A stretch of DNA of 64,000 bases from Micrococcales bacterium 72-143 (GTDB taxonomy: Bacteria > Actinomycetota > Actinomycetes > Actinomycetales > Microbacteriaceae). The DNA lies in contig MKVM01000003.1 in assembly GCA_001898835.1 (NCBI GenBank), forward strand, positions 124,001 through 188,000, read 5' to 3'. Position 1 is the first letter of the stretch; each line of letters begins with the position of its first letter. The position numbers were made by a program, and so were the translations under genes. Positions 11,759 through 46,638 of the stretch are shown one piece after another. A model generated the notes under the pieces. It saw only the letters and a list, made by a program, of their open reading frames with translations, did no database searches and was not told where the DNA came from.

Positions 11759-11817
11759 GGCACTACCCCCACCCGCGGCTCGGGTTCCCCGTGAGCGCGC
11801 CGCGGGTCGCACGCTCG

Positions 11818-11832: not shown

Positions 11833-11850
11833 GGGTCGCGCGTCACCTCT

Positions 11851-11869
11851 CTAGGTGGAAACCACCTAG
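11851..11869. promoter_or_regulatory. Perfect 19-bp dyad operator between LAL regulator and giant surface gene
   Basis: CTAGGTGG-AAA-CCACCTAG is a perfect 8-3-8 inverted repeat. Each arm has TAGGT, matching the TRGGY core known for LuxR/GerE-type helix-turn-helix proteins, so the divergent LAL regulator is the natural ligand (inference). It sits at about -36 to -18 of the presumed leaderless start of the regulator gene, and just upstream of the -35 region of the giant gene. That geometry fits autoregulation plus activation of the surface protein. Confidence 0.6.
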
Positions 11870-11874
11870 ACCGC

Positions 11875-11880
11875 CATACT
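11875..11880 (+). promoter_or_regulatory. Putative -10 box (CATACT) for a leaderless LAL transcript
   Basis: CATACT ends exactly 7 bases before the GTG at 11887, so transcription would begin at the start codon. No well-spaced Shine-Dalgarno sequence is present. Confidence 0.45.
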
Positions 11881-11886
11881 GGGGCG

Positions 11887-14451: not shown

Positions 14452-14469
14452 GCGGCGCTCCCGAGGGGC

Positions 14470-16101
14470 TCAGAGCGCGACGGCGCCCACGAGGTTCACC
14501 CGGATCCCCATCCGGTCGAGCATCGCGGCCTTCGCCGCGAGGGCCCGATCGGCGGTCTCGGCGTCCGGTGCGTAGACGAGCTGCGCGTGGTTCGCCTTGT
14601 GTCGCGCCATGAACTGGTCGCGCGTCACGTCGTGCAGCACGACGTGCGCGATGGGCCACTCCGGGTTGGTCGCCCGCTTGCGGCGTTCCGTCTCCTCGGC
14701 CGGCAGCTCCACGACGGTGCCGCGGAAGATGTCGGCCTGCAGCACGCCGTCCGCGATGAAGACGCGCGACAGCACGACCTCGCCGGGCTTGGAGACGCCG
14801 TTGAGGGTCGCGCCGCCCGCGGGGAAGAAGACGTGGCCCTGCCGCCAACCCTCGGCGTGGTCCCATCCGCCGAGATGCGAGGCGGGCACCGAGCCCGAGA
14901 TCTCGTACACCCACACGAAGCGGCCGTCGTGCTCCTCGCCCCAGCGCACATCGTGCAGCGTGTTGTCGGGCACGAGCCCCATCGCGCGCCACACGCGGTC
15001 GGTGACGAGCGCGTCGACGGCCACCCCCTCGTCCGCCTCGTTGAAGTGCGGGAACGCCCGGCCGGCGTGCAGCTCGCGGGCACCGTCGCGCGAGAGCACG
15101 GGGGGCCGCTCCGTGGTGTTGAGGATGCCCTCGGCGAGGTCGGAGGCCGGCACCAGGTCCTTGAGGCCCTGCTGGTACTGGATGCCGACGGCGTCGAGCC
15201 CGAAGTCGTCGGCGATTCGCAGCGCGGCGATGTACATCTTGAGCTGCCACTGCACCTGCTCGCGCGTGAGCTCCGTCGCCGGGTCCTCGCCGTAGCGGAA
15301 CGTCATCCCCCGCTCGACGAGCCAGTCGTAGGCGGCGTCCGCCTCGTCCTCGCGGACGTTCAGCATCTCGGCGTAGAGCGCCGACTGCGAGAGGCGCTCC
15401 TTGTAGATCCCCGTGGGGTTCAGCAGCTCGTCGTCGAAGATCGCGTTGTACATGCCCATGCAGCCTTCGTCGAAGACCCCGATGATGGCCTTCTCGGCGA
15501 GCAGTTGGTCGCCGAGCGCCCGACCGAGTTCGACCTCCGGGCTGTCGGGCAGCGGGGGCAGCGGCCGCACGTGGGACGCGTCGTGGGTGATGCGCCCCGT
15601 CTCGGTCCACTCGCGCAGCCCGTCGCGGAACCACGGGTCGGTGAAGTCGACGGACCAGGTGGTCGCGTACTCCTTGCCCATCTTGGTGAGCCCGGCGTTG
15701 AGACCGAGGAGGCCGACGAGGCCCGGCCAATCCCCGGCGAAGTTCGCGACCGTGAGGATGGGGCCGCGATGCGTGCGCAGGCCCGCGAGCACGTGATGGG
15801 AGTACTGCCACACCGATTCCGCGACGATGAGGGGCGCATCGACGGGGATGTGCCGGAACACCTCGAGGCCCATCCGCTGGCTCGAGATGAAGCCGTGCCC
15901 TGTCGCCGGGTCGACCTCGTTCGCGCGGATCACGCGCCAGCCGAGCTCCTCGAGCACGCGGGTGACGGCCGTCTCGAGCTCCACCTGGGTGGGCCAGCCG
16001 GCCACGTTGGCCGACTCCCGCAGGTCGCCGGATGCGATGAGGTAGGCGGTCTTCGGAGCGAGCTCCGGCCGCGGGGTGATCGCGGGAAGCGCGTAGGTCA
16101 T
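14470..16101 (-). CDS. L-fucose/D-arabinose isomerase family sugar isomerase
   Basis: 543 residues; GGAG precedes the ATG, which overlaps the kinase stop as ATGA. Family signs are GIQYQQGLKD (306-315) with D321 in DLAEGIL, aligning with the G-x-x-GQR...GDTAEAIL metal-site region of FucI, and ANH at 503-505, matching the GANHG histidine of FucI. Length is close to FucI (~590). FucI enzymes interconvert L-fucose/L-fuculose and D-arabinose/D-ribulose. Coupling to an FGGY kinase inside a GH172/GH183/GH116 locus makes D-arabinose to D-ribulose the most economical role (inference). L-fucose or another aldose cannot be excluded, and not every metal ligand could be verified by eye. The gene is convergent with the LAL regulator. 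Confidence 0.8.
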   Translation of the reverse strand: MTYALPAITPRPELAPKTAYLIASGDLRESANVAGWPTQVELETAVTRVLEELGWRVIRANEVDPATGHGFISSQRMGLEVFRHIPVDAPLIVAESVWQYSHHVLAGLRTHRGPILTVANFAGDWPGLVGLLGLNAGLTKMGKEYATTWSVDFTDPWFRDGLREWTETGRITHDASHVRPLPPLPDSPEVELGRALGDQLLAEKAIIGVFDEGCMGMYNAIFDDELLNPTGIYKERLSQSALYAEMLNVREDEADAAYDWLVERGMTFRYGEDPATELTREQVQWQLKMYIAALRIADDFGLDAVGIQYQQGLKDLVPASDLAEGILNTTERPPVLSRDGARELHAGRAFPHFNEADEGVAVDALVTDRVWRAMGLVPDNTLHDVRWGEEHDGRFVWVYEISGSVPASHLGGWDHAEGWRQGHVFFPAGGATLNGVSKPGEVVLSRVFIADGVLQADIFRGTVVELPAEETERRKRATNPEWPIAHVVLHDVTRDQFMARHKANHAQLVYAPDAETADRALAAKAAMLDRMGIRVNLVGAVAL

Positions 16102-17606
16102 GCGAGTGCTCCTTCGGTTTGCCGGACGGCGAGCGCGTGCGCGACGTCGGTCGTGCCGCGGTAGAGATCGAGATAGAGGCGGTACAGCGCGTCGTAGGCG
16201 GCGGCCGCGGCGGGGTCGGGGCGGATCACGACCTCGACGGGGTTCCAGTCGGCGATGCGGGGCGGGATCTCGGCGGTCGCGCAGGCGGCGAGGAACGCGG
16301 CGCCGTAGCTCGCGCCGATCGTCGTCGCGGGCACCTCCTGCTCGAGGCCGGTCGCGTCGGAGACGATCTGCAGCCACAGCGCGCCCTGGGTGCCCCCGCC
16401 GACGGCGACGACCCGGCGGATGTCGGCCCCCGCGGCGCGCATCGTCTCGATGTTGTGCCGCACCCCGAAGGCGGTGGCCTCGAGAGCCGCCCGGTAGAGG
16501 TCGCCCCGCCCGTGACTGAGGGTGAGCCCCGCGATGACCCCCCGCGCGTCCGGGTCGAGGATGGGGGTGCGCTCGCCCGCGAAGTAGGGGAGCATGACGA
16601 TCCCGTGCGCCCCGACCCCGGATGCCGCCGCTTCGGCGAGCAGCTCCGGATAGTCGGCGCCGGTGAGGGAGGAGAGCCATGCCGTGAGGGCGCCCGCCGC
16701 CGCGAGTCCTCCCGCGAGGTTGCGGCTGCCGGAGAACGCGCCCGCCGTGGTCCACATCGACGGGGTGCGAAGCGTCTCCTCGCCCGTGGCGACGAGGAAC
16801 ATCGTGGTGCCGTACATGAGCATGAGGTCGCCGTCGCCGTGCGCTCCCGCGCTCACGGCCTCGGCCCAGGCGTCGATCGTGCCGACGATCACGGGCGTGC
16901 CGGCGGGGATCCCCGTCTCGGTGGCGGCGGCCTCCGTCACCTGGCCGGCGAGGTCGCCCGCCCAGGCGAGGGCCGGCGGCTCGAGCCCCGGGGCGTAGCG
17001 GGCCCAGAGCTCCTCGTCCCATCGCCCGGCCTCGATGTCGTAGAGCGGCGTGGTCTGGCTCGCCGACTGATGATCGAGCACGTACACCCCCGTGAGCCGG
17101 CGGACGAGCCAGGATGCGGGCATGAAGAGACGGCGCGCACGCGCGTAGCCGTCGGGCTCCTCGTCGGCGATCCACACGATCTTGGGGCCCGCCGCCTGCG
17201 AGCTGAGGAGGGAGCCCGCGGTGCGCGCGATGCGCTCGACGCCGAGCTGGACGGACATCCGCTCGACCTGCTCGGAGGCACGCGTGTCGATGCCGTAGAG
17301 GATCGCGGGGCGCACCGGCTCGTCGTGCGCGTCGGCCAGCAGGACGCACGGTCCCATGCCGCTGACCCCGACCGCGGCGATATCGATTTCTTGGCCGTCG
17401 TGCGCGAGTTGGGCGTGCAGGCGTCGCGCGATCTCGACGAATTCGGCCCACCAGATCCGGCCGTCCATCTCGACCCAGCCCGGCCGCGGACGCGACACCT
17501 CGTGCGAGATCGCTGCGCTGGCAAGGATGCGGCCCTCGGAATCGACGACGACGCCCTTGCTGCTCGACGTGCCGATGTCGACGCCGAGAGTGCAACGACG
17601 ACGCAT
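16098..17606 (-). CDS. FGGY-family carbohydrate kinase, candidate D-ribulokinase
   Basis: 502 residues with a strong AAGGAGG ribosome site. The N-terminal phosphate loop GVDIGTSSSKGVVVD and the FGGY catalytic Asp in VGTIDAWAEA (D245) are intact. A second ATP-binding part follows around residues 390-410 (AVGGGTQGALWLQ). It is coupled by ATGA to the isomerase gene, so product of one is probably substrate of the other. In the D-arabinose scheme it would make D-ribulose 5-phosphate; xylulokinase or fuculokinase specificity remains possible. Transcription starts from an operator-bearing promoter 42-70 bases upstream, and the leader contains a small inverted repeat GTCCGGC-AA-GCCGGAC (17626-17641). 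An operator-like site lies inside the gene at codons 73-76. Confidence 0.85.
   Translation of the reverse strand: MRRRCTLGVDIGTSSSKGVVVDSEGRILASAAISHEVSRPRPGWVEMDGRIWWAEFVEIARRLHAQLAHDGQEIDIAAVGVSGMGPCVLLADAHDEPVRPAILYGIDTRASEQVERMSVQLGVERIARTAGSLLSSQAAGPKIVWIADEEPDGYARARRLFMPASWLVRRLTGVYVLDHQSASQTTPLYDIEAGRWDEELWARYAPGLEPPALAWAGDLAGQVTEAAATETGIPAGTPVIVGTIDAWAEAVSAGAHGDGDLMLMYGTTMFLVATGEETLRTPSMWTTAGAFSGSRNLAGGLAAAGALTAWLSSLTGADYPELLAEAAASGVGAHGIVMLPYFAGERTPILDPDARGVIAGLTLSHGRGDLYRAALEATAFGVRHNIETMRAAGADIRRVVAVGGGTQGALWLQIVSDATGLEQEVPATTIGASYGAAFLAACATAEIPPRIADWNPVEVVIRPDPAAAAAYDALYRLYLDLYRGTTDVAHALAVRQTEGALA
17379..17390. promoter_or_regulatory. Candidate auxiliary LacI operator inside the kinase gene
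   Basis: GATATCGATTTC differs by one base from the 12-bp core GAAATCGATTTC of the five upstream operators. It encodes Glu-Ile-Asp-Ile with the uncommon codons GAA and GAT, preceded by CAA, which is unusual in this GAG/GAC/CAG-rich genome. It lies about 277 bp downstream of the main operator, a distance compatible with looping or roadblock repression. Confidence 0.4.
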
Positions 17607-17647
17607 GCCGGCTCCTCCTTGACCCGTCCGGCAAGCCGGACGCGCCC

Positions 17648-17676
17648 ACTCTAGAAGAAATCGATTTCAAGCTCAA
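17648..17676 (-). promoter_or_regulatory. Promoter with LacI operator for the kinase-isomerase operon
   Basis: Reading the minus strand: -35 TTGAGC (17671-17676), 17-base spacer, -10 TAGAGT (17648-17653). The spacer contains the operator TGAAATCGATTTCT (17656-17669), so repressor and RNA polymerase would compete directly. The same geometry is found at 25157-25185. Confidence 0.7.
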
Positions 17677-17719
17677 GTCACGCCCACGGGGCCGGCATCG
17701 CGCCGCACCGGCGGACGCC

Positions 17720-18697
17720 TCAGATACGCGCCGGTTGCACCTCGTTGCGCAGCACGACGGTTCGCGCGGGCTGCGTGTCCCCGCCGATCCGGCCGAGCAG
17801 CATCTTGGCGGCCGTCACCCCCATATGACGGGCGGGCAGCCGCACGACCGTGACCGCCGACGGGGTCAGCGTCGTGAACGGAAGCGAGCCGATGACCGCG
17901 ACCCCCATCTTCGGCGGGGTCATCCCGTGCTCGGTGAGCACCTGGATGGCGCCGACCCCGAGCAGGTTGTTGGCGGCGACGATCGCATCGGGCGGCTCTG
18001 CCGACCCGAGAAGCTCCTCCATGACCTCGCGCCCCCCGTCGACCCGGAAGGTCGAGTAGCGCAGCAGCGGATCGAGGTCGAGCTCGGGGAAGTGCCGCGC
18101 CATCACACCCCGCCAGCCCTGCGCGCGCTCGTAGGCCGTCTCGACGTGCTCCGGCCCGGTGAGGCAGGCGATCCGCGTGTAGCCCGCCTGCACGAGGTTC
18201 TCGGTGGCGGCCTGCCCCGCCTGACGATTGGCCATCACGACGCCGTCGATGTCGTATCCCGTGCCCCGGTCGACCGCGACGACCGGGCGGCCACGCGCGA
18301 GCAGCTCGTCGAGGTCGCTGTGGTCCGATGCCGCGGCGAGGATCACGCCCGCCATGTGCTCGGAGATCGCGATCTGCAGGTAGGTCGCCTCCTTGTCGAC
18401 ACGGGAGTCGGTGTTGCACAGCACGACCGAGTAGCCGGCCTCGGATGCGACGTCCTCGACGCCGCGCGCCATCTCGGTGAAGTACGGGTTCTCGATGTCC
18501 GGGATCACGAGGGCGATGACCTCGGAGGCCTGCCTGCGCAGCGTGCGCGCCGTGCGATTGGGCGTGAAGCCGAGCTGCCGGGCGGCGTCGCGCACGGCGG
18601 CCGTCTTGTCCTCCGAGACGCCCATGCCGTTGAACACGCGCGAGACGGTCGCCGGCGAGACGCCCGCCAGCTTCGCCACCTCGTAGATCGTCGCCAT
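17720..18697 (-). CDS. LacI-family transcriptional repressor of the glycan locus
   Basis: 325 residues. The N-terminal helix-turn-helix ATIYEVAKLAGVSPATVSRV and hinge are typical of LacI/GalR, followed by a periplasmic-binding-protein-like sensor domain (VIALVIPDIENPYFTEMARG onward). ATG 18697 is chosen; a GTG at 18706 three codons upstream is possible. The gene lies between the kinase-isomerase operon and the divergent beta-propeller gene. One operator sits in the divergent promoter region, implying autoregulation, and four more copies precede the other transcription units. The inducer is probably D-arabinose, D-ribulose or an arabinan fragment (inference). Confidence 0.9.
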   Translation of the reverse strand: MATIYEVAKLAGVSPATVSRVFNGMGVSEDKTAAVRDAARQLGFTPNRTARTLRRQASEVIALVIPDIENPYFTEMARGVEDVASEAGYSVVLCNTDSRVDKEATYLQIAISEHMAGVILAAASDHSDLDELLARGRPVVAVDRGTGYDIDGVVMANRQAGQAATENLVQAGYTRIACLTGPEHVETAYERAQGWRGVMARHFPELDLDPLLRYSTFRVDGGREVMEELLGSAEPPDAIVAANNLLGVGAIQVLTEHGMTPPKMGVAVIGSLPFTTLTPSAVTVVRLPARHMGVTAAKMLLGRIGGDTQPARTVVLRNEVQPARI

Positions 18698-18724
18698 CGC
18701 TCCCACCAGCCGTGCCGGCGCACG

Positions 18725-18769
18725 TTGACATGCCGGTCTAGCAACACTACAGTGCTGAAATCGATTGCA
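18725..18769 (+). promoter_or_regulatory. Promoter and LacI operator shared by the beta-propeller gene and lacI
   Basis: On the plus strand: TTGACA (18725-18730), 17 bases, TACAGT (18748-18753), then operator TGAAATCGATTGCA (18756-18769) over the expected start site near 18760. On the minus strand TTGCAA (18766-18771), 16 bases and TAGTGT (18744-18749) form a plausible promoter for lacI, with the operator inside its spacer. One bound repressor could block both directions. Confidence 0.7.
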
Positions 18770-18870
18770 ACATTGACGCGGCCGCCGACCCCGCGACCGG
18801 CATCCCCCTCGCGCGCGACAGCGGTCCCCTGACGCTCCGCGTCGCCCACGTCGACCAGGCGAACACCGTC

Positions 18871-20370
18871 ATGACCGCGAGCGACGGCGACCTCTGGCCC
18901 TCCGCGTGGGCGAGCGACGGGTCGCTCTACGCCGCCGCCGGCGACGGCACCGGCTTCGCCCGCCGCGGATGGAGCGACATCCTCGTCAACCGCATCGACG
19001 GCACGCCTGAGACGGGACTCACCGGGGAGCGCCTCTCCGACGGCGACGCAGTCGCCCCGATCTGGGACCCGGAGCGCTTCAACCGCAAGCCGACCGGAAT
19101 GGCGTGCGTGCGGCTCGACGGCCGCGACGTGCTGCTGCTCGCCGTGCAGGACCTCCGCTGCACGGAGGGTCCCGACATGTTCAACGAGGCGCCGACGGCC
19201 ACGATCGTGCGCAGCGACGACCTCGGACGCACCTGGACGTGGCCCGAGCAGCCGATGTTCACCGATCACGTCTTCACGACCGTGATGCTCCTCGACCTCG
19301 GCCAGGCGAACGGCGGATGCGGGTGGGTCTATGCCTACGGGATCGACGGCAACTGGCGCACCTCCTTCTCGAAGATCGTCGACGATCCGACCGCGCTCTA
19401 CCTCGCCCGCGTGCCGGCCGCGCGCGCGCAGGATCGCGAGGCCTGGGAGTTCATCTCCGGCTACGGCGACGACGGCTCGCCCCTGTGGACGCACGACATC
19501 GGGCGGAAGCACCCCGTGCTCGTCGACGAGCGCCGCCACTATCCCGAACCCGTTCCCGGCATGGACGCCCGCGGCTTCACGGGCATCGCGCAGGGCGGGG
19601 TGGTGTGGAACCCGGGGCTCGGCCGCTATCTCTACTCCAGCTGGAGCGAGTACACCTTCGAGTTCTTCGAGGCGCCCGCCCCGTGGGGCCCCTGGCGCCT
19701 GCTTCACCGTCATGACTTCGGTCACTTCCCCTGGCACGGGCCGCGATCGCCGATCGCCAAGCACGGCGGCTACGCCCCGACCATGCCCTCCAAGTTCATC
19801 TCGCCCGATGGCCGGGACCTGTGGTTGCAGAGCAACTGGTTCGTCCCCGCCTCGTCGCGGGGCGGCCGCGCCTACTCCTTCGGCCTGCGGCGCGTGCGTT
19901 TCGACCCCGGCACGGATGCGGTCGCCCCCGCATCCGGGAACCTCGCCCTCGACGGGGCGTGGCCGCTCGTGTCCCGCGCCCGAGAAGGCCAGGAGGCGGT
20001 GCTCAACGACGGCACGCGCGACTACGCGGAGGACTCCGCGTTCGGCCCGGGGTCGGGTGAGGACGTGTGGGGCTACACCTGGGCGGCCCCCCGGCGGATG
20101 GCGCGGCTCGTGTACGCCCCCGGGCCGCAGGACTCGCTCGGCGGCTGGTTCGCGTCGCCTCCGCGCGTCGAGGTGCGGATCGACGGAACCTGGCGCGCGG
20201 TCGAGCACCTCGAGGTCGCGCCGCCGTACCCGTGCGACTTCACCGCTCTCGAGGAGGACGCGTACGTCTTCTCCTTCGCACCCGTCGTCGCCGACGGCAT
20301 CCGGCTGACGGGCGAGCCCGGGGGCCCGCTCCGCTACACCTCGATCTCCGAGCTCGAGGTCTGGGCGTAG
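18871..20370 (+). CDS. DUF4185-like beta-propeller glycosidase, no signal peptide
   Basis: 499 residues from the first ATG. The opening GDLWPSAWASDGSLYAAAGD parallels the DUF4185 motif (T-D-L-G ... G-x-x-x-x-x-F-G-D), and repeated blade-like text follows (IVRSDDLGRTWTW; GRYLYSSWSEYTFEFFEAP; LWLQSNWFV). The last ~100 residues look like a beta-sandwich. DUF4185 enzymes include the GH183 endo-D-arabinanases, so action on arabino-oligosaccharides is likely but not proven. No signal peptide is visible, suggesting a cytoplasmic enzyme. Start is uncertain: the frame stays open upstream through the operator to the predicted transcription start, no good Shine-Dalgarno precedes 18871, and no ATG/GTG/TTG lies in frame upstream within the transcript. 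Convergent with the permease gene. Confidence 0.7.
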   Translation: MTASDGDLWPSAWASDGSLYAAAGDGTGFARRGWSDILVNRIDGTPETGLTGERLSDGDAVAPIWDPERFNRKPTGMACVRLDGRDVLLLAVQDLRCTEGPDMFNEAPTATIVRSDDLGRTWTWPEQPMFTDHVFTTVMLLDLGQANGGCGWVYAYGIDGNWRTSFSKIVDDPTALYLARVPAARAQDREAWEFISGYGDDGSPLWTHDIGRKHPVLVDERRHYPEPVPGMDARGFTGIAQGGVVWNPGLGRYLYSSWSEYTFEFFEAPAPWGPWRLLHRHDFGHFPWHGPRSPIAKHGGYAPTMPSKFISPDGRDLWLQSNWFVPASSRGGRAYSFGLRRVRFDPGTDAVAPASGNLALDGAWPLVSRAREGQEAVLNDGTRDYAEDSAFGPGSGEDVWGYTWAAPRRMARLVYAPGPQDSLGGWFASPPRVEVRIDGTWRAVEHLEVAPPYPCDFTALEEDAYVFSFAPVVADGIRLTGEPGGPLRYTSISELEVWA

Positions 20371-20384
20371 CGGAGCCGCCGCGG

Positions 20385-21281
20385 CTACTTGATGCCGGAG
20401 ATCTTGATGCCCTCGACGATGTAGCGCTGAAGCACGAGGCACAGGATGATGACGGGCGCCGCCGCGAGAGCGGACCCCGCCATGAGGAGGCCCAGCTCGC
20501 TGTTGCCGCGCTCGAAGCGGAACGACGCGAGGTACTGCTGGATCTGGAAGAGGTCGGGGCTCGAGATCGTCATGACGGGCCACACGTAGGAGTTCCAGAA
20601 CGCGAGGAACGAGGTCATCGCGACGACCACGAAGACGGGCTTCGACATCGGCACGAAGATCGACACGAAGATCCGGAATCGCCCCGCGCCGTCGATGAAC
20701 GCCGACTCCTCGAGCGCCCGGGGCACCGACAGATAGAACTGCCTCAGGAAGAAGATCTGCGCCGCCGACGCCGCCCCCGGCAGTATCAGCACCGCGAGCG
20801 TATCGAGCATGTGCAGGCGCGTCACCACGATGAACGAGGTGAGCAGGATCGCCATGCCCGGCAGGAACATCGTGCCGATCACGACGACCCAGACGAGCCT
20901 CTTGAACGCGAAGTCCAGTCGTGCGAAGACGTACGCCGCCATCGAGTTGATGGCGACGCTGAGCGCCGCGAAGATGAGCGCGCCGGCGAGCGTCACCAGG
21001 ACGGTCCGCAGGAACGCCGGGTCGGAGAGGATCTGCGCGTAGTTCTCCCACTTCCACACCTCGGGGAAGAACTGGAACGGGGTGCGGGTCACCTCGTTGC
21101 GGGCCTTGAAGCCGGAGATCACGAGCCAGGCGAGCGGGAACAGCGCGCCGAACAGGAACGCGACGACGAGGATCCCGCGAAGCAGCCCGGCCGCGATCCG
21201 CGGTCCCCGCGCACCCCGTGGGTGGCGCGCGGGTCGGGACTCGGTCTGCGGGGCGTCGCTGATGAGTGTCGTAGCTGTCAC
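20385..21281 (-). CDS. Carbohydrate ABC transporter permease, MalG type
   Basis: 298 residues from GTG 21281, three bases after the partner permease stop. Six membrane helices are visible, and the MalG-type EAA loop reads PRALEESAFIDGAGRFRIFVSIFVPMSKP near residues 185-215. The C-terminus ends in QRYIVEGIKISGIK, close to the classic QR-x-x-x-x-G-x-x-x-G-x-x-K ending. With the MalF-type permease it forms the membrane channel of a CUT1 sugar importer. No ATPase gene is encoded here, so a shared MsiK-like ATPase elsewhere is presumed (known arrangement in actinobacteria). Substrate is inferred to be arabino-oligosaccharide from neighbours. Confidence 0.93.
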   Translation of the reverse strand: MTATTLISDAPQTESRPARHPRGARGPRIAAGLLRGILVVAFLFGALFPLAWLVISGFKARNEVTRTPFQFFPEVWKWENYAQILSDPAFLRTVLVTLAGALIFAALSVAINSMAAYVFARLDFAFKRLVWVVVIGTMFLPGMAILLTSFIVVTRLHMLDTLAVLILPGAASAAQIFFLRQFYLSVPRALEESAFIDGAGRFRIFVSIFVPMSKPVFVVVAMTSFLAFWNSYVWPVMTISSPDLFQIQQYLASFRFERGNSELGLLMAGSALAAAPVIILCLVLQRYIVEGIKISGIK

Positions 21282-21284
21282 GGT

Positions 21285-22211
21285 TCAGTCCTCTGACTGG
21301 GTCGAGTTCAGGAAACGGAAGATGAGCGCCGAGATCGTCCCCAGCACGATGAAGAGCAGGAACGCGGCGGCGATCGAATAGCCGACCGTGGGATCGTCGC
21401 GGAAGTGCGAGAAGATCAGCAGGTTCGGGAGCATCGTCGCGTCCTGCGGCCCTCCCTTCGTGAGCACGAGCGGCAACTCGAACTGCTGCACGTTCGCGAC
21501 GAACCCGGCGATCGTGAGGTAGACGAAGGTGTTCTTCATGAGGGGCAGGGTGATCGCGAAGGTGCGCTGCCACCAGCCGGCGCCGTCGAGGACGGCGGCC
21601 TCGTAGTAGCTCGCCGGGATGTCGAGCAGGCCCGCGAGCATGATGAGCGCGGCGACGCCGAGCCCCAGCCAGATGGCGGGTACGGCCATCGCGGGGAGGG
21701 CGAGCCCCACATCCGCGAGCCAGGCCTGGGCCTCGATCCCGAGGAAGCCGATCGCCCAGTTCGCGATCCCCCCGCGGTACTGGTAGATCAGGATGAAGAT
21801 GATCGACGCGATGACCGTCGAGATCGCCGTGGGGATGAACACGCTCACCTTGAGCACCGAGGCGAGACGTCTGCTGACCCCCGCCACGAGGCTCGCGAAG
21901 GCGAAGGCGAGCACGAGCTGCGTCGGCACCACCATGAGCGCGAAGAGCAGTCCGCGGCCGACCGATGCGACGAAGGCGTCATCCGTCAGCACGCGCCGGA
22001 AGTTGTCGAACCCGACGAACACCGACTCGCGGTAGAAGCTCCAGTCGAAGAAGCTCAGGTAGGCCGACTGGACCATCGGCCAGATCACGAAGATGGCCAG
22101 CAGCACGAGAGCGGGAGCGAGCATCACGAAGGCGATGAGCGTGTCGCGGGGGGCGCGGCGCGTGCGCCGAGCCCCCCGCACGGCCTCGCGGCCGGTAGTG
22201 GAACGGGTCAA
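21285..22211 (-). CDS. Carbohydrate ABC transporter permease, MalF type
   Basis: 308 residues from a TTG start five bases after the binding-protein stop. Cytoplasmic Arg-rich N-terminus, then six membrane helices (LIAFVMLAPALVLLAIFVIW first). The EAA-loop equivalent is LLDIPASYYEAAVLDGAGWWQRTFAITLPLMKN near residues 200-230. It pairs with the downstream MalG-type permease as a CUT1 sugar channel. Member of the operon GH183-CBM / binding protein / MalF / MalG controlled by the operator at 25165-25178. Confidence 0.93.
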   Translation of the reverse strand: MTRSTTGREAVRGARRTRRAPRDTLIAFVMLAPALVLLAIFVIWPMVQSAYLSFFDWSFYRESVFVGFDNFRRVLTDDAFVASVGRGLLFALMVVPTQLVLAFAFASLVAGVSRRLASVLKVSVFIPTAISTVIASIIFILIYQYRGGIANWAIGFLGIEAQAWLADVGLALPAMAVPAIWLGLGVAALIMLAGLLDIPASYYEAAVLDGAGWWQRTFAITLPLMKNTFVYLTIAGFVANVQQFELPLVLTKGGPQDATMLPNLLIFSHFRDDPTVGYSIAAAFLLFIVLGTISALIFRFLNSTQSED

Positions 22212-22216
22212 GATCG

Positions 22217-23544
22217 CTACTTCTTCTGGTCCGCCAGCTTCAGGTCGGCGATCACCTTGGTGATGGCCGCATCCGCTTCGGCTTGCGCCTCATGGATGTC
22301 TCCACCCAGCATGGCCTTCTCGAGCGCCGTCCCCATCGCGAAACTCACCTGCCAGTCGTAGGTGGGCTCCAGGATCGCCGACTTCGTCGACTCGACGAGC
22401 ACGTCGTAGAAGGGGTTCACCGACTTCGCCGGGTCCTCCGCGAGCTCGGCGGCGACGCTCATGCGCGGCGAGAGCTTGGTGAACTTGGTGTCGATGAAGT
22501 ACTGCTTCGGCACCGAGGTGTCCTCCGCGAGCAGCCAGCTGATGGCGGATGCCGCGAGCTCCTGCTTCTTCGAGTTGGCGTCCACGCCGATCGTCCACCC
22601 GCCGAGCGTCGCGCTCGACCGTGACGGGTCCCCGTCGATGGTGGGCATCGCGGCGACGCCGAGCTTGTCGATGACGTCGGGGTAGGAGTTCAGCAGCAGG
22701 CTGATCCCCCACGAACCGTTGGCCATCATCGCGAGGGTGCCTCGCCGAGCGGGGCGGCGTCGCCGTACGGGCTGAGCGGCTGCTTGGCGATGACGCCCTT
22801 CGCGTAGAGGTCCTGATAGAACTGGAAGAGCGGCTCGTAGGCCGGGTCCGACGCCTCCGACGTCGACCAGTCGTCCGAGATCGGCAGGTGCCCCGCGGTG
22901 CCGTTCTGCGACGCCCAGGTGGTCCAGGACAGCTCGACCGCGTTCTGCGCGATCTGGAAGGGCACGACGTCCGCGTTCGCGGCCTTCAGCTTGAGGCCCG
23001 CGTCGATGAGGCCGTCCCAGTCGGTCGGCGGCTTCGCCGGGTCGAGCCCGGCCGCCTCGAAGTAGTCGGTGCGGTAGAGCAGCAGCGCGCTGGGCTCGTA
23101 CAGCAGCGGATACGCGTACTGCTTGCCGTCGATGGTGACCGCGTCGAGGAACCGCGTCTCGAGGTCGTCCCAGGCCGACTGCTCGATGTAGGAGGTGATC
23201 GGGGCGATCTCCCCGTTGCGCGCCTTCATCGGAACGGCCGAGTAGTTCATCGTGTACATGTCGGGCGCGGTGCCGGCAGCCTGGGCCGCCTTCATCTTCT
23301 GCTCCCAGGCGTCGCCGGGGACGACCGTCAGCTTGATCTGCACGTCGTCGTGCGCCGCGTTGAACGCGTCGACCTGCGCCTTGTACCAGGCGTTGTCCTC
23401 ATCCGAGAACTTGTTCTGCCAGAACTCGACGGTCTTGTCGTCGACGGGGGCTCCGCCGCCGGGGGTGCCGCTGCCGCACCCGGTGAGGGCGAGGGCTCCG
23501 ACGACGACCGTCGAGACGGCGAGGCCGAGGGATCGGTACTTCAT
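22217..23544 (-). pseudogene. Carbohydrate ABC transporter substrate-binding lipoprotein, frameshifted
   Basis: Intended product is about 442 residues. GAGGAGG precedes ATG 23544. The lipobox ALTGC puts the lipidated Cys at residue 23. The CUT1 binding-protein fold is clear (TVEFWQNKFSDEDNAWYKAQ; WDGLIDAGLKLK; MMANGSWGI). The first frame runs to a TGA at 22726-22728 after SPYGDAAPLGEAPSR, while the remainder (from GTLAMMANGSWG) is in another frame. Adding one base to the CC at 22740-22741 restores GEGTLAMMANGSW, so a single-base deletion in a C run explains everything. This could be a sequencing or assembly error or a recent inactivating mutation; both halves retain normal codon use. Function: capture of arabino-oligosaccharides for import (inference). 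Confidence 0.85.
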
Positions 23545-23579
23545 TGTTTCCTCCTCTGTGACTGCGTGATGCAGGGGCT

Positions 23580-25103
23580 TCAGTACGTGGTCAGCGAGTA
23601 GTCGTCGACCTGGACCCACATGTCGCCGTGGTCGGTCCAGATGCCGGTGAAGAGCTCGACGCTCGTTCGGCTTCCGCTGTTGAAGGTCACCGTGTAGCGG
23701 GTCCACGACCCGACGGCGTGGAAGTTCGCCTCCGAGATCGGAGCTCCTCCGACGTTGCGGACCCCGAAGAATCCGTTGTCGTTGTTGCCGGACGTGCGGA
23801 TGAACCCGGTCATGCGGTAGTTGGTGTTCGGCGTCACCGTGACGACCTGATGGATGTCGTGCCAGCCGGAGTTGTAGCGCACGAACCCGTTGCGGTCGCC
23901 CGAGAACCCCCAGATGCCGTTGTCGATCCCGCAGTTGCCCGTGCACGCCCACGGGCTGCTCGCGCTGCCGGTGGTCTGCCGCTCGAAGCTCGGGTCGCGC
24001 ACCAGGTTGGGGTTGGCCACGGTGCCGGTAGCCGTCAGGTTCACCTTCAGCAGGTAGACGTTGTACGGGTCCCATTCCGACAGCGCGAAGTAGAGCTCGC
24101 TGCCCGACGACCACGGGTGCATGAAGCCGCCGTAGGGTCCGGGGTAGTCCGCGGAGCTCGCGATCACCTCGGGCGTGCTCCAGGATGCGGTCGGCCCGGT
24201 GGCGTTCCGCAGCACGATGTCGCTGCCCTGCATGTAGCTCATGAGCCACTTGCCGCTGTAGGCGTTCTTCTGCACCGAGAGCTCGGCGACCGGGGCGGAG
24301 ACGATCGCGACGGCGGCCGACTCGGACGACGACCAACTCGACCCGTTCCAGTAGGTGAAGGCCGACTTGGTGAGCATCGAGGCCTCGGCCACGCGCGCGA
24401 GGTAGGCCGACCCGGTGCGGCCGTTCGGGGTGCCGAACATGTAGACGTAGCCACCGTCGCGCACGAAGGCGACCATCTGGAACTTGTTGGTGCCGCCGGG
24501 GTTGTCCCAGCGGGGACCGCCCGCGGTCACCCATGTCTGACCGTTGTCGTCGGAGTAGGCGATCGCCGCGTAGTTGGTGTCCCACGAACCGGGGACGCCC
24601 CAGTGGCGCACGGACATGTAGGCGAGGTACTGACGCGTGCCGACCGCGACGCCGGCGGTCGGGATGACGGTCATCTCGTCGTTGTCGATCTTCTTGCTCG
24701 GGATGAGCTCCTTCGCATGCCCGGGCACGTCGGTGGCCGCGCTCGCGAAGCTCATGCCGTCGGAGAGGTTGGTGTCGGTGCTGCGCAGCAGGACCTGGCT
24801 GCGCCAGTCGTTGCCGTTGCCGCCCGGTGGGGTCCAGGTGTTCCCGAAGGTGTCGCCGAACGCGGCGAGGATCTGGCCGGAGCCGTTGTCCCACATGATG
24901 CCGAGGTCGGTGGAGTACACGCCCCAGTTGGCGGGGGTGTTGCTGACGGAGCCCGGACCGGTCATCTTGCTGACGACGACCGCGGGCGACAGCGCGGTGG
25001 TGGCCTCCGCCCGCTCCGCGTCGGGTGAGGAATAGAGAAGTGCTGCCGCGGCCAGTCCCGTCACGGCGAGGCCCGCTGTCCAGCGGGCGATAGTGCGACC
25101 CAT
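23580..25103 (-). CDS. Secreted DUF4185 (GH183-type) endo-D-arabinanase with C-terminal binding module
   Basis: 507 residues with a strong AAAGGAGG site. Signal peptide at residues 1-34 (RTIARWTAGLAVTGLAAAAL then ...AERAEA). The DUF4185 beta-propeller follows: GVYSTDLGIMWDNG and LAAFGDTFGNTW near 60-90, YLAYMSVRHWG, MLTKSAFTYWNG, and the closing SEWDPYNVYLLK near 345. From about residue 360 a jelly-roll carbohydrate-binding module begins (NLVRDPSFERQTTG ... VQVDDYSLTTY). GH183 is an established family of endo-acting D-arabinanases from mycobacteria, Dysgonomonas and Microbacterium. It is first gene of the importer operon, so extracellular cleavage coupled to uptake is the obvious role. Confidence 0.85.
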   Translation of the reverse strand: MGRTIARWTAGLAVTGLAAAALLYSSPDAERAEATTALSPAVVVSKMTGPGSVSNTPANWGVYSTDLGIMWDNGSGQILAAFGDTFGNTWTPPGGNGNDWRSQVLLRSTDTNLSDGMSFASAATDVPGHAKELIPSKKIDNDEMTVIPTAGVAVGTRQYLAYMSVRHWGVPGSWDTNYAAIAYSDDNGQTWVTAGGPRWDNPGGTNKFQMVAFVRDGGYVYMFGTPNGRTGSAYLARVAEASMLTKSAFTYWNGSSWSSSESAAVAIVSAPVAELSVQKNAYSGKWLMSYMQGSDIVLRNATGPTASWSTPEVIASSADYPGPYGGFMHPWSSGSELYFALSEWDPYNVYLLKVNLTATGTVANPNLVRDPSFERQTTGSASSPWACTGNCGIDNGIWGFSGDRNGFVRYNSGWHDIHQVVTVTPNTNYRMTGFIRTSGNNDNGFFGVRNVGGAPISEANFHAVGSWTRYTVTFNSGSRTSVELFTGIWTDHGDMWVQVDDYSLTTY

Positions 25104-25156
25104 TTCACGCCTCCTTTGGCGATCCGTCGGCGCGGACGTCGGCGTCCGGCATCGTC

Positions 25157-25185
25157 AGGGTAGACGAAATCGATTTCAAGTGCAA
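25157..25185 (-). promoter_or_regulatory. Promoter with LacI operator for the GH183-importer operon
   Basis: Minus strand: -35 TTGCAC (25180-25185), 17-base spacer TTGAAATCGATTTCGTC, -10 TACCCT (25157-25162). Operator TGAAATCGATTTCG occupies 25165-25178, wholly inside the spacer, exactly as at 17648-17676. Confidence 0.75.
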
Positions 25186-25221
25186 GGCGCCGCGAGGGGC
25201 GATTTCGGGGCCTGGATTGCA

Positions 25222-25268
25222 TTGACAGCACCCAGTGGCCATCCATAGAATGGCTGAAATCGATTACA
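25222..25268 (+). promoter_or_regulatory. Promoter with LacI operator for the GH172 gene
   Basis: Plus strand: TTGACA (25222-25227), 18 bases, TAGAAT (25246-25251), then operator TGAAATCGATTACA (25255-25268) covering the presumed start site. The arrangement mirrors the promoter at 18725-18769. Confidence 0.75.
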
Positions 25269-25293
25269 GTCGAGAAGAAAGCCGCTGCCTTCA

Positions 25294-26430
<1,137 letters not shown>

Positions 26431-26438
26431 GCGGCGCG

Positions 26439-28928
26439 TCACTCCGGGCGGATGACCTCGAGCTCGAGCGCGCCCTCGGCGACCTCGATCGCGACCTCGT
26501 CCTCGCTCACCACGACCGTGCCGTAGCCGGCCGCCGCGATCCACGGCCACCGTCCGGGAGCGTCGACGTGCAGCACTCCGGCCGCCTCGTCGACGCGCAC
26601 CCCGGACCGTGCCTGCAGCACCGTCCAGCCGGACATCGCGCGCGCGTAGTGGTCGCCGCACTCGATCTCGTTGTACGGATTGCGCCGCGCTCCGTCATGC
26701 CGGCCCCACAGCCCGTCGAGCACGGCCTGGCCCTCCTCGACGAGCCCCTCGAACAGGCAGTGCGCGGCGACCTGCCACTCGATCCCCGTCCATACCTCGT
26801 CGGCGTAGCGGGTCGGCACCCGGGGGCGGCCGCCGTCCGGCCACGAGCACATCACGAGACCCACGTCGTCCGCCGAGTCCGCGTAGACGCGGTAGGGGTG
26901 GGCGAAGTCCGCGAAGCCGTGCCGGAGGTTCGTCGCGACGACGTGGCGCAGCGCGCTGCGCACATGCTCGACCGGCAGGATCGGCCCCAGTCCCAGCTGA
27001 TGAGCCCACCACTGCCCGATCACCTGGTCGCTGAGCGTTCCCGTGAGCCACTGGAAGTCGACGGGGTCCCCCTCGTCCAGCACCTGCACGTAGTGGGTCC
27101 CGTCGAACAGCGCCTCGTCGTAGAGCCGCGAGCCGGATGCGAAGCGCGCCCGCGCATCCGCCGCCTCGGCCCCGTCGCCCGCGAGCAGTGCGAGCTCCTC
27201 GTAGGCGCGGAGCGCCGCCAGCCACAGCGTGCCCATGAACGGGTTGACGCCCGCGAGGTCGATGTCATGGGTGCTCGGCTGGATGCCGTGCAGGATGCCG
27301 TCGCCGTCGGCGTCCCACTTCCCCGCGATGTGCCGGTAGAGCCGCACGAGCGCGGGCCAGCGCCGCTCCAGCCAGTCGCGCCCCGCACCCCGCTGCACGT
27401 CGCGGAGCGACTTGAGGATCGTCGCGAGCATGCCGTCGAGAGCGGGCTCCTCCGGGCCGCCGATCAGCTCATCCGTCATCTGCGCCAGGTAGACGGGCAC
27501 GCGCAGGCGATGGGGGATCGCCCCGCTCGCGGCCTGCATGATGTCGAACTCGGTGTCGCGCATGTTCCGTTCGAGACTCGGCCACAGCCCCGCGAGTGCC
27601 GCCTCGTACTGCCACACGTGAGTGCAGTTGAGCGGGCAGGAGCCGCCGAAGACGCCGGACCACATCCACGTCGAGGCGCCGAGCGAGCCCTCGTAGCCGT
27701 AGAAGCGTCCGTCCGCGCCGAGGAAGCAGCTCGGGCTGCGCACATAGGCCGCCTGGGCGGCGAGGCGGTCGACCTCGCGCGCCTCGAGACTGGAGCCCAC
27801 GAGGGTGGCCGTCCACGCCGTGGTGCGCGCGACCAGCTCCTCCCAGCGGCGCTCGACCTCGTCCTGCACCGCGAGCGCGTCCGCGAAGCGAAGCGCGTAG
27901 GCGTTGCCGAGGAAGAAGCGCGTGGAACCCCACTCCGCGCGCGGCTGCCCGAACTGCTCGACGTCGACCATCCGGTTCGGGAAGTGCCACGACATCGAGA
28001 AGCGGACGGTGCGCGAGGCACCGGGCTCCAGCCAGAACGGCACGCCGACGACACCGAGCCAGGAGCGCCCGTCCGGGCTCGGGCCGACGCCGCCGCGCGG
28101 GGCGTTGAGCTGCGGGTCGCCGATCGTGGGGGCGGTCGAGAGCCGGGCCCGACCGTCGTTCAGCGCCCGCGAGGCCAGGAAGGCGCGCAGCTGCTCGACC
28201 CCCGCGCAGCGCGCCAGCACGGCGGCCGCCTCGTCGTCGGCGGCGAGCACGAGCTGGCCCGCGAGCTGGTCACTCTCGTCGAGGGAGGGGTTGTCCATGA
28301 CGACACGCGCCCAGCCCCCGCCGCGGCGCAGGCGGTTGACGTTGCCGCCGAGCCCCGGCGTGTGCTCGCCGATCGGGGTGATGCCGTCCCAGCCTGCCGC
28401 GTTCAGCAGCGAGCCCGCGAGCGTGCCGTGCAGCGGGTGGCTTCCCGTGTTGCTGAGCGTGAACTCGAACATCCCCGTCGGGATGGAGCTCAGCTCCACG
28501 TCCCGCGGCGCCATCGGGTTGAGCGCCCGCATCCGCACGACGAGCGGATGCGCCGTGTCGCGGAGCTCGACCTCGGCGACCGGATAGGTGCCGCTGAAGC
28601 GTGCCGATTCGAAGGTCGAGAAGGCGGCGGCCGCGTCCGACATCCAGGCGGGCACGGCGGCGTCGGTGGTCAGCGGGGCCTCGGGGTCGGGCACCGGGGT
28701 GCCCTGCAGCATCGAGATCACCTCGAGCGGCGGCTCGATCTGCGTCACCCGCAGCCAGAATCCGGTGCCCGGGAGCGCGCCCAGGTGATTCGGCATCCCG
28801 TTCAGCTGCCACTGACGCAGCGAGCCGTCCGCGTTGACGGCGAAGCCGCCGGTGCCGATTCCGCCGACCGGCATCGCGAGCGCCGGCGCCGCGGTGTGGG
28901 CGAGCGACTGCTGCAGGATGTCGGCCAT
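26439..28928 (-). CDS. GH116 family glycosidase
   Basis: 829 residues with the two GH116 domains: an N-terminal beta-sandwich (GGIGTGGFAVNADGSLRQWQ) and an (alpha/alpha)6 barrel. FYGYEG (E413) matches the GBA2-type FGYLEG nucleophile motif. STHDIDLAGVNPFMGTLWLAAL (D555) matches the acid/base region, 142 residues apart against about 150 in GBA2. NCTHVWQYEAAL and NEIECGDHYARAMSGW are further family marks. GH116 covers beta-glucosidases and xylosidases; a Microbacterium member acts as exo-beta-D-arabinofuranosidase on mycobacterial arabinan (established knowledge). No signal peptide. Begins one base after the stop of the lipoprotein GH183 gene, so the two form an operon under the operator at 30125-30138. 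Confidence 0.87.
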   Translation of the reverse strand: MADILQQSLAHTAAPALAMPVGGIGTGGFAVNADGSLRQWQLNGMPNHLGALPGTGFWLRVTQIEPPLEVISMLQGTPVPDPEAPLTTDAAVPAWMSDAAAAFSTFESARFSGTYPVAEVELRDTAHPLVVRMRALNPMAPRDVELSSIPTGMFEFTLSNTGSHPLHGTLAGSLLNAAGWDGITPIGEHTPGLGGNVNRLRRGGGWARVVMDNPSLDESDQLAGQLVLAADDEAAAVLARCAGVEQLRAFLASRALNDGRARLSTAPTIGDPQLNAPRGGVGPSPDGRSWLGVVGVPFWLEPGASRTVRFSMSWHFPNRMVDVEQFGQPRAEWGSTRFFLGNAYALRFADALAVQDEVERRWEELVARTTAWTATLVGSSLEAREVDRLAAQAAYVRSPSCFLGADGRFYGYEGSLGASTWMWSGVFGGSCPLNCTHVWQYEAALAGLWPSLERNMRDTEFDIMQAASGAIPHRLRVPVYLAQMTDELIGGPEEPALDGMLATILKSLRDVQRGAGRDWLERRWPALVRLYRHIAGKWDADGDGILHGIQPSTHDIDLAGVNPFMGTLWLAALRAYEELALLAGDGAEAADARARFASGSRLYDEALFDGTHYVQVLDEGDPVDFQWLTGTLSDQVIGQWWAHQLGLGPILPVEHVRSALRHVVATNLRHGFADFAHPYRVYADSADDVGLVMCSWPDGGRPRVPTRYADEVWTGIEWQVAAHCLFEGLVEEGQAVLDGLWGRHDGARRNPYNEIECGDHYARAMSGWTVLQARSGVRVDEAAGVLHVDAPGRWPWIAAAGYGTVVVSEDEVAIEVAEGALELEVIRPE

Positions 28929-28929
28929 C

Positions 28930-30075
28930 TCATCCGGCCTTCACGAGGTCGGCGGAGAACCAGAAGACGTTGTACGGCCCCCACAGGGAGAGCGTGAAGT
29001 AGATCGTGCGGCCGCCGTTCGCGACGTAGCGCGGGTTGAGGTACGGGGAGTAGAGCCCGGGGTACTCCGAGCCCGGAACGAGCTCGAGGGCGTCGCCCCA
29101 GGCGCCCCAAGGCGTGAGACCCTCGCGGATGTAGGCGTTGCCGGCGTCGGAGTAGGTCATGATCCAGCGGTCCAGGTAGTCCGACCACATGACCGAGAGC
29201 TCGCCGATGGTGCCCTCGACCACGAGGGTCGCGCGGGCGGGATCGGAGCTCCAGTTCGGCCGGCCCGCCGCATCGAGGCCCGTGAAGTACTCGTAGGCCT
29301 GGATGTCCTCGACGGCCTCACGCGTCATGGCGACGCGCATGAGGGCGACGCCGCCGAAACGCCCGGCGGGGATGCCCCAGATGTAGAGCCTGTCGACGCC
29401 GTCCTCCCGGGCGGGCGCGACCGCGATCTGCACGAAGTTGGAGTCGCCCGGCCACTGGACGTCGATCGGCGTCCAGCTCGCACCGCGGTCGGTGGAGCGT
29501 GCGAGGCGCGCGTAGTTGGCGTCCCACTTTCCGGCGTCGCCCCAGTGGGTGACCGACATGTAGCTCAGGTAGAGGGTGTCCTCCACCGCGAAGCCGTAGG
29601 TGGGGATCTTCGTCACCTCGCCCGTGCCGTCGTTGGCGTCGTGGTCGCCCTCGACGAGTGCCTCCGCGAGGCCGAGGCCGTCGGCGGGCGCCCAGCCGGC
29701 GAACGAGATGCCGTCGGCGGGGTCGGCGTCGGTGGTCCACGCGGACACGTTGGAGCGCCAGAAGCCGCCCTGCCCGCCGTAGGAGTCGGGGTCGCGTTCG
29801 CCGAAGGTGTCGCCGAAGAGGAAGTAGGTGCGATCGCCCAGGTTGATCATCGATCCCAGGTCGGTGCCGGCGACCCCGGCGCGCTCGGTGTCGTTGACCG
29901 CGCCCGGACCCGTCAGCTGCGCCACCTGGGTGAGCTCACGCACTCCCGTCAGCACGAAGGGGTCGTCCTGGGTGCCGCGCACCTCCGGCGGGCCGCCGAC
30001 GCAGCCCGCGAGGGAGGCGGCGGCGATGGCGGCGAGAGATGCGGAACCCAGCCGGGCGGCAGCGCGCGAATCCAT
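28930..30075 (-). CDS. DUF4185 (GH183-type) lipoprotein, putative endo-D-arabinanase
   Basis: 381 residues with GAGGAGG before the ATG. The lipobox SLAGC gives lipidated Cys25, so the enzyme should sit on the outer face of the membrane. The DUF4185 pattern is clear: GPGAVNDTERAGVAGTDLG, RTYFLFGDTFGERD, LYLSYMSVTHWGDAGKWDANYA and the closing SLWGPYNVFWFSADLVK. It shares these blocks with the secreted paralogue at 23580-25103 but lacks a binding module. Endo-cleavage of D-arabinan at the cell surface is inferred from the family. First gene of a two-gene operon with GH116. Confidence 0.85.
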   Translation of the reverse strand: MDSRAAARLGSASLAAIAAASLAGCVGGPPEVRGTQDDPFVLTGVRELTQVAQLTGPGAVNDTERAGVAGTDLGSMINLGDRTYFLFGDTFGERDPDSYGGQGGFWRSNVSAWTTDADPADGISFAGWAPADGLGLAEALVEGDHDANDGTGEVTKIPTYGFAVEDTLYLSYMSVTHWGDAGKWDANYARLARSTDRGASWTPIDVQWPGDSNFVQIAVAPAREDGVDRLYIWGIPAGRFGGVALMRVAMTREAVEDIQAYEYFTGLDAAGRPNWSSDPARATLVVEGTIGELSVMWSDYLDRWIMTYSDAGNAYIREGLTPWGAWGDALELVPGSEYPGLYSPYLNPRYVANGGRTIYFTLSLWGPYNVFWFSADLVKAG

Positions 30076-30124
30076 GGATCCTCCTCGATCGTCTCGCCCA
30101 GGCTACGGGGGATCACCTCGAAAA

Positions 30125-30138
30125 AGAAATCGATTTCA
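30125..30138 (-). promoter_or_regulatory. LacI operator upstream of the GH183 lipoprotein-GH116 operon
   Basis: TGAAATCGATTTCT on the minus strand, identical to the operator upstream of the kinase. The promoter elements are less clear here: TTCTTT (30123-30128) and TAGCCT (30100-30105) with a 17-base spacer would put the operator over the -35 region. Confidence 0.7.
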
Positions 30139-46633: not shown

Positions 46634-46638
46634 TCGCG

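What the first reader, a model, noticed from the sequence alone, without database searches (positions are those of the whole stretch)
14470..30075. Complete candidate D-arabinan utilisation locus
Three DUF4185/GH183-type proteins, one GH172, one GH116, a CUT1 importer, a LacI regulator, a FucI-family isomerase and an FGGY kinase lie together. GH183, GH172 and GH116 are exactly the families reported to act on the D-arabinan of mycobacterial arabinogalactan and lipoarabinomannan, including in Microbacterium. What the published enzyme sets lack, as far as I know, is the linked uptake, regulation and catabolic arm seen here. The bacterium would eat the wall polymer of related actinobacteria.
Basis: partly seen in the sequence, partly recalled or inferred. 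Interest (0 to 1): 0.92.

Follow-up and report, generated by a model that had tools for sequence, protein, structure and literature searches.

The report
Transferred D-arabinan-eating gene island
This bacterium carries a gene cluster for cutting, importing and eating D-arabinan, a sugar polymer of mycobacterial cell walls; such clusters are already published in its relatives, and what this copy adds is a predicted repressor site shared by its genes, signs of assembly from more than one source, and insertion in one block.

Summary
In detail: the named genes are at 14470-30075. The reading (D-arabinan utilisation) is very likely right, but the novelty claim is wrong. Shimokawa et al. 2023 (PMC10509167) already describe this cluster in Microbacterium arabinogalactanolyticum, with importer, isomerase and kinase, induced by D-arabinose and mycobacterial wall extract. 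I find much the same cassette in 17 further actinobacterial loci.

Added here: (1) a LacI-type operator, GAAATCGATTNCA, has 5 exact matches in the 3.33-Mb genome, each just upstream of PUL genes, and recurs in relatives: 64 sites in 18 loci, 62 upstream of a PUL gene, 0.0 expected. (2) The locus is mosaic: regulator, isomerase and GH172 are Microbacterium-like; GH116, solute-binding protein and main endo-arabinanase are Jiangella-like. (3) It lies in a ~27-kb block; the flanking genes adjoin in 8 of 8 congeners. (4) The third DUF4185 protein is a divergent GH183-fold protein, without visible signal peptide, with one active-site Glu replaced by Gln.

Caveat: the solute-binding-protein gene is frame-broken as assembled, so "complete" is unproven.

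The parts
14470..16101 (-). FucI-family isomerase (proposed D-arabinose to D-ribulose), 543 aa
   Evidence: PF02952 40.1 bits over cut-off 29.3, PF07881 below cut-off; 69-89% identical copies in 17 of 17 kept cassettes, one only a fragment at a contig end; no PDB sequence match
16098..17606 (-). FGGY kinase (proposed D-ribulose to D-ribulose-5-phosphate)
   Evidence: PF00370/PF02782; nearest NCBIfam xylulokinase, below its cut-off
17656..17669 (+). LacI-type operator before kinase-isomerase unit
17720..18706 (-). LacI-family regulator of the PUL
   Evidence: PF00356 + PF00532; up to 88-89% identical to Microbacterium PUL regulators
18725..18753 (+). promoter-like TTGACA-17-TACAGT
   Evidence: 2 found in 14400-30300 against 0.8 in shuffles
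18756..18769 (+). LacI-type operator between lacI and D4185c
18871..20370 (+). D4185c: divergent GH183-fold protein, no signal peptide by eye, extra C-terminal part
20385..21281 (-). importer permease 2
   Evidence: PF00528
21285..22211 (-). importer permease 1
   Evidence: PF00528
22217..23544 (-). solute-binding protein in two pieces (22217-22729 and 22726-23544), frame broken
   Evidence: PF01547/PF13416 on the N piece, PF01547 at its cut-off on the C piece; one frame in 20 of 20 relatives matched by both pieces
23580..25103 (-). GH183a, secreted endo-D-arabinanase, EndoMA1 type with its C-terminal binding domain
   Evidence: PF13810 391 bits; 8HHV E 3e-172; D33, D51, E243, R198 and 10 of 10 checked binding-domain residues kept
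25165..25178 (+). LacI-type operator before GH183a-importer unit
25222..25251 (+). promoter-like TTGACA-18-TAGAAT
25255..25268 (+). LacI-type operator before GH172
25294..26430 (+). GH172 exo-alpha-D-arabinofuranosidase, no signal peptide by eye
   Evidence: PF11175 294 bits; 87.3% identical to ExoMA1 8IC8, specificity residue N253 kept
26439..28928 (-). GH116 exo-beta-D-arabinofuranosidase, clade with Jiangella-like proteins
   Evidence: PF12215 + PF04685; 36.4% identical to ExoMA2, E431/H446/R483/D557 kept; tree
28930..30075 (-). GH183b, lipoprotein GH183; by place beside the importer in relatives perhaps the MIAR_33320 counterpart (inferred)
   Evidence: PF13810 262 bits; lipobox LAGC read from sequence; D33, D51, E243, R198 kept
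30125..30138 (+). LacI-type operator before GH183b-GH116 unit
   Evidence: lies inside the longest frame of the 30039-30719 ORF, whose true start is unknown
3313..30130 (.). block missing at this site in congeners (holds giant Ig-like gene, LuxR-type gene and the PUL); edges approximate
   Evidence: flanking genes adjoin in 8 of 8 congeners; GH172 in 1 of 9 genomes of the genus, the own one

Best explanation
A horizontally acquired, LacI-controlled D-arabinan utilisation locus. Secreted GH183a and lipoprotein GH183b cut the D-arabinan of mycobacterial-type arabinogalactan and lipoarabinomannan into oligosaccharides; a CUT1 ABC importer brings them in; cytoplasmic GH116 removes beta-linked ends and GH172 alpha-linked ends to give D-arabinose; isomerase and kinase turn it into D-ribulose-5-phosphate for the pentose phosphate pathway. 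The LacI protein sits on GAAATCGATTNCA sites before five gene groups and is released when D-arabinose or a derivative appears. D4185c probably helps to cleave imported oligosaccharides in the cytoplasm. Shown by sequence: gene content, residue conservation, operator distribution, the empty site in congeners, mosaic kinship. Inferred: substrate, transcription units, inducer, isomerase and kinase specificity, D4185c activity and location. As assembled the binding protein is broken, so uptake may be lost in this strain or the break may be a sequencing error.
For: Sequence and residue-level match to three enzymes of known structure and activity (activities in PMC10509167). Much the same cassette around GH172 in 17 actinobacterial loci. 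In the published cluster the GH and SBP genes are induced by D-arabinose and wall extract. Operator: 5 exact matches in the genome, all in the PUL, backwards control 0; 62 of 64 sites upstream of PUL genes in 18 loci. No PF04602 match in the genome. Flanking genes adjoin in 8 of 8 congeners.
Against: SBP frame broken. GH116 only 36% identical to the tested ExoMA2. D4185c below Pfam cut-off with Gln at the third active-site carboxylate. Isomerase and kinase not assigned to a substrate by any model used. Many other loci of the same GH172 scan (for instance L032, L033, L037, L039, L040) show GH172 with none of the other PUL genes in the stretch held, so GH172 alone does not mark the pathway. No expression or growth data for this organism.
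Confidence: 0.86

Rival explanations
1. The locus serves another D-furanoside (for instance alpha-D-fructofuranosides or another D-arabinose glycan) rather than mycobacterial-type wall D-arabinan.
For: GH172 also holds an alpha-D-fructofuranosidase, and DUF4185 is widespread (PMC10509167, sections 9-10). GH116 is divergent.
Against: GH172 carries Asn253, whose side chain blocks fructofuranose in ExoMA1, and GH183a keeps the checked D-arabinan-contacting residues of EndoMA1 except L292.
Confidence: 0.07
2. A decaying acquired locus (not exclusive with the main reading): the importer's binding protein is really frame-broken, so enzymes are made but oligosaccharides are not used.
For: Break in the SBP; the D4185c frame has homologous residues upstream of any usual start codon.
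Against: The other genes are open over their length with high third-position GC; operators intact; one break in a draft assembly may be an error.
Confidence: 0.25
3. Remodelling of the cell's own D-arabinan wall, as proposed for mycobacterial GH183 enzymes.
For: GH172 and GH183 occur in wall-arabinan makers (PMC10115798 abstract and section 10).
Against: No PF04602 match in this genome while the C. glutamicum control is positive; isomerase, kinase and importer genes point to catabolism.
Confidence: 0.02

Closest known systems
D-arabinan PUL of Microbacterium arabinogalactanolyticum, MIAR_33170-33320 (Shimokawa et al. 2023, PMC10509167)
   Same: GH183 set, GH172, GH116, ABC importer, isomerase and kinase in one cluster; GH172 87.3% and GH183a 55.2% identical to its enzymes.
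   Different: Four DUF4185 genes there, three here; GH116 only 36% identical and of another clade; SBP and GH183a of Jiangella type; third DUF4185 divergent, without visible signal peptide; regulator and operators not named in its main text. Its genome was not found here, so gene order was compared through its locus tags and other Microbacterium loci only.
Jiangella anatolica GH116-GH172-lacI-GH183b-importer-GH183a-D4185c cluster (locus L067)
   Same: Nearest relative of the SBP and GH183a; GH116 of the same clade; has a D4185c.
   Different: LacI only 37% and GH172 64% identical; no isomerase or kinase match in the stretch held.
Dysgonomonas gadei PUL42 (Al-Jourani et al. 2023, PMC10115798)
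   Same: DUF4185, DUF2961 and a predicted fucose isomerase, seen in growth on D-arabinan.
   Different: Bacteroidota PUL; its sequence was not compared here.

Membership tests
Actinobacterial D-arabinan PUL (M. arabinogalactanolyticum type) | secreted GH183 endo-D-arabinanase with catalytic Asp/Asp/Glu | tested here: met
   GH183a and GH183b keep D33, D51, E243; signal and lipobox read by eye; activity not tested
Actinobacterial D-arabinan PUL (M. arabinogalactanolyticum type) | GH172 exo-alpha-D-arabinofuranosidase with Asn253 | tested here: met
   87.3% identity, N253 kept
Actinobacterial D-arabinan PUL (M. arabinogalactanolyticum type) | GH116 with ExoMA2 catalytic and specificity residues | tested here: met
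   E431, H446, R483, D557 kept at 36.4% identity
Actinobacterial D-arabinan PUL (M. arabinogalactanolyticum type) | intact ABC sugar importer | tested here: inconclusive
   two permeases present; SBP frame broken as assembled
Actinobacterial D-arabinan PUL (M. arabinogalactanolyticum type) | linked isomerase and kinase genes | tested here: met
   substrate specificity not tested
Actinobacterial D-arabinan PUL (M. arabinogalactanolyticum type) | induction by D-arabinose and mycobacterial wall extract | not testable with these tools
   needs culture
GH183 (DUF4185), for D4185c at 18871-20370 | Pfam PF13810 score over the curated cut-off | tested here: not met
   30.7 bits against 39.5
GH183 (DUF4185), for D4185c at 18871-20370 | propeller fold like EndoMA1 | tested here: met
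GH183 (DUF4185), for D4185c at 18871-20370 | catalytic Asp/Asp plus third Glu | tested here: inconclusive
   D51 equivalent kept in 14 of 14; an invariant GDLWP Asp lies near D33 but the alignment does not put them in one column; E243 is Gln in 14 of 14. The Glu is essential in EndoMA1 but not in DgGH4185b

The most novel reading that the evidence does not exclude
D-arabinan loci of actinobacteria form one regulon under a LacI repressor with a conserved GAAATCGATTNCA operator, and they come in interchangeable versions (Microbacterium-type and Jiangella-type) that recombine; D4185c and its relatives are a separate GH183-like subfamily with a Gln in place of the third carboxylate and, in this version, a cytoplasmic site of action, so with a new linkage specificity.
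Probability: 0.35. Interest if true: 0.55.

Novelty: new member of a known kind. Interest (0 to 1): 0.42.

Why it matters
D-arabinan is found in few cell walls, mycobacteria among them, so a mapped operator and regulator could make a D-arabinan/D-arabinose sensor, and a second GH116 clade and an odd GH183-like family widen the set of candidate enzymes for dissecting arabinogalactan and lipoarabinomannan. The empty site in congeners and the mosaic kinship suggest that the ability to eat this polymer moves between actinobacteria. The basic system itself is already published.

Tried and rejected
Novelty of uptake and catabolism: rejected on PMC10509167. Own-wall remodelling: rejected on PF04602 absence. 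Idea that the window GH116 is a mycobacterial gene because many class-level matches share one genus: rejected; that genus is Jiangella-like (its G508 copy scores and spans as the J. anatolica protein), and PF04602 is in none of 11 other genomes tested (12 with the own); one Mycobacterium MAG (L031) does carry the type. Naming the host organism: not achieved; it is in a genus of 9 held genomes, in a family that is probably Microbacteriaceae, since a LacI from a same-family genome is identical to that of a Cryobacterium MAG. Finding the M. arabinogalactanolyticum genome by its ExoMA1 sequence among 398 family genomes: not in the draw (best 91%). tRNA genes in the window and Rfam RNAs in 1-36000: none. 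No integrase or transposase among the block's proteins scanned; short ORFs and direct repeats at the edges were not looked at. Foldseek search of D4185c in pdb could not be queued; VIA-align was run instead. The C-terminal part of D4185c was not folded alone. Co-occurrence of D4185c with GH172 (at E under 1e-100: 13 and 23 of 394 genomes, 12 shared) gave Fisher p 7e-16, but 8 of the 12 are one family, so this is not a fair probability. The operator pattern was first read off the window, so its presence there is partly circular; its absence elsewhere in the genome and its recurrence in relatives are not. Only the exact pattern was searched genome-wide; weaker sites elsewhere were not sought.

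Full report
What is there. Pfam puts the 23580-25103 and 28930-30075 products firmly in DUF4185 (391 and 262 bits, cut-off 39.5), the 18871-20370 product below it (30.7). The SBP is split: N piece 22726-23544, C piece 22217-22729. In the open stretches of the fetched loci (stretches under 180 residues and a few duplicate loci left out) the N piece has 46 matches and the C piece 21; the 20 stretches matched by both have them in one frame; the other C-piece match (L018) is at a contig end.

What the enzymes are. GH183a is 55.2% identical to EndoMA1 (8HHV) with D33, D51, E243, R198, W138, P141 and Y293 and 10 of 10 checked residues of its C-terminal binding domain kept; L292 is Pro. GH183b is 35% identical and keeps D33, D51, E243, R198, W138, L292 and Y293 (P141 is Ala). 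GH172 is 87.3% identical to ExoMA1 with Asn253 kept, the residue that shuts out fructofuranose. GH116 is 36.4% identical to ExoMA2 but keeps nucleophile E431, acid/base D557 and the arabinofuranose-reading H446 and R483 (residue roles from PMC10509167 sections 8 and 9). In a wider GH116 alignment these four are identical in 42 of 42 rows; all rows were picked by similarity to the window protein or ExoMA2, include these two and at least two duplicate pairs, and two short matches were dropped. Neither GH172 nor GH116 shows a signal peptide by eye; GH183a has one and GH183b a lipobox, as in the published scheme. No signal-peptide program was run.

The published system. PMC10509167 (abstract, section 6 part 1, sections 7-10 and searched passages read) describes in M. 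arabinogalactanolyticum four DUF4185 genes, GH172, GH116, an ABC importer, isomerase and kinase, with induction of the GH and SBP genes by D-arabinose and mycobacterial wall extract, and related clusters in other actinobacteria. The finding's claim that linked uptake and catabolism were missing from print is therefore wrong. The words regulator, LacI, transcription and operator do not occur in its main text, though its gene maps (figures) and supplements could not be seen, and a search for papers with both D-arabinan and LacI gave none in the held library.

The cassette elsewhere. A scan with GH172 gave 80 loci, a capped list. In the 17 that I kept for their close regulator (LacI 63-89% identical: L004-L018, L022, L026), lacI and isomerase occur in 17 of 17, a GH183 in 17 of 17, GH116 in 16, both permeases in 16, kinase in 14 within the stretch held, some cut by contig ends. 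The 63 other loci were not counted; Streptomyces loci there have isomerase, kinase and importer genes with more distant binding proteins and regulators, and many Bacillota and Chloroflexota loci show GH172 alone. GH172 at 66% identity or more is in 14 of 398 family genomes, the own one included, and in 1 of 9 genomes of the genus, the own one: patchy.

Regulation. The palindrome GAAATCGATTNCA has 5 exact matches in the 3,330,479-base genome, all in this locus: before kinase, between lacI and D4185c, before GH183a, before GH172, before GH183b; the pattern read backwards has 0. In the window a looser pattern with up to two mismatches has 5 matches, 0.45 expected. Over 18 loci (a window stretch plus the 17; 367,944 bases) there are 64 sites; 62 lie within 350 bases upstream of a PUL gene match, two (L006, L009) do not, one of the 62 also lies inside the 30039 ORF frame; 0.0 are expected from a first-order model, three samples a locus. 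The only two promoter-like hits of the region, TTGACA-18-TAGAAT before GH172 and TTGACA-17-TACAGT before D4185c (0.8 expected), end 3 and 2 bases before an operator. That is the layout of a repressor over the start site. In M. arabinogalactanolyticum the same kinds of gene respond to D-arabinose. Regulator, operator and inducer remain untested.

Mosaic and insertion. Against the Microbacterium loci, GH172 is 85-89%, isomerase 81-89% (75% in a 51-residue fragment), LacI 75-89% and kinase 70-73% identical, and LacI falls inside the Microbacterium group of its tree. The SBP N piece and GH183a pair with Jiangella anatolica (SH-aLRT 99 and 98). GH116 falls in a clade (100) with Jiangella-like proteins, one Mycobacterium MAG, one Ruaniaceae protein and others, apart from the Microbacterium GH116s, though its own place inside that clade is weak and the program warns of long branches; one Jiangella-family protein (L164) sits in the other clade. 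All are quick trees of coverage-filtered rows. The picture is not a clean two-source one: the permeases are only somewhat closer to Jiangella (74 and 66% against at best 66 and 62%), GH183b is closer to Microbacterium (74 against 69%), and D4185c is closest to M. barkeri (73 against 56%). GC is lowest in 1-40000 over 20-26 kb (0.667-0.679), the importer and GH183a. In 8 of 8 congeners the genes that flank the block here, a GDPD-family gene (2332-3312) and the 30039-30719 gene, adjoin, their match ends at most about 120 bases apart; here some 26.8 kb lie between. Of the PUL genes only GH172 was sought in the whole congener genomes. Whether the giant Ig-repeat gene and the LuxR-type gene came with the PUL is unknown.

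Verdict. A real, well-conserved D-arabinan utilisation locus; a new member of a published kind, with a well-supported predicted regulon, a mosaic build and an odd GH183-like protein as the parts worth following.

Noticed in passing
3383-11821 (-): 2812-aa protein with nine bacterial Ig-like Big_3_5 stretches and Flg_new_2 repeats, inside the block missing at this site in congeners.
   Followed up: partly
11650-14451 (+): LuxR-type regulator with an AAA/STAND-like ATPase part, also in the block; 36-37% relatives elsewhere in two congeners.
   Followed up: partly
18742-18871: Open frame upstream of the first usual start codon of D4185c encodes residues conserved with L007 (RVAHVDQANTV) but has no ATG, GTG or TTG; unusual start, trimmed N terminus or error.
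   Followed up: partly
L022:13642-14484: A protein that looks like only the leader and C-terminal part of D4185c, as if the propeller had been deleted (by eye).
   Followed up: no
L046:15811-21043: Paenibacillus locus with GH172-, GH183b-, SBP- and permease-like genes: a D-arabinan-type cassette in Bacillota.
   Followed up: no
L031:10001-13584: Mycobacterium MAG with GH172 and a window-type GH116 (55%) side by side.
   Followed up: no
33559-34947 (+): Surface-protein-like gene with beta-helix and Flg_new repeats near guaA.
   Followed up: no
45296-53430: Branched-chain amino acid type ABC importer genes with two Peripla_BP_6 binding proteins.
   Followed up: no
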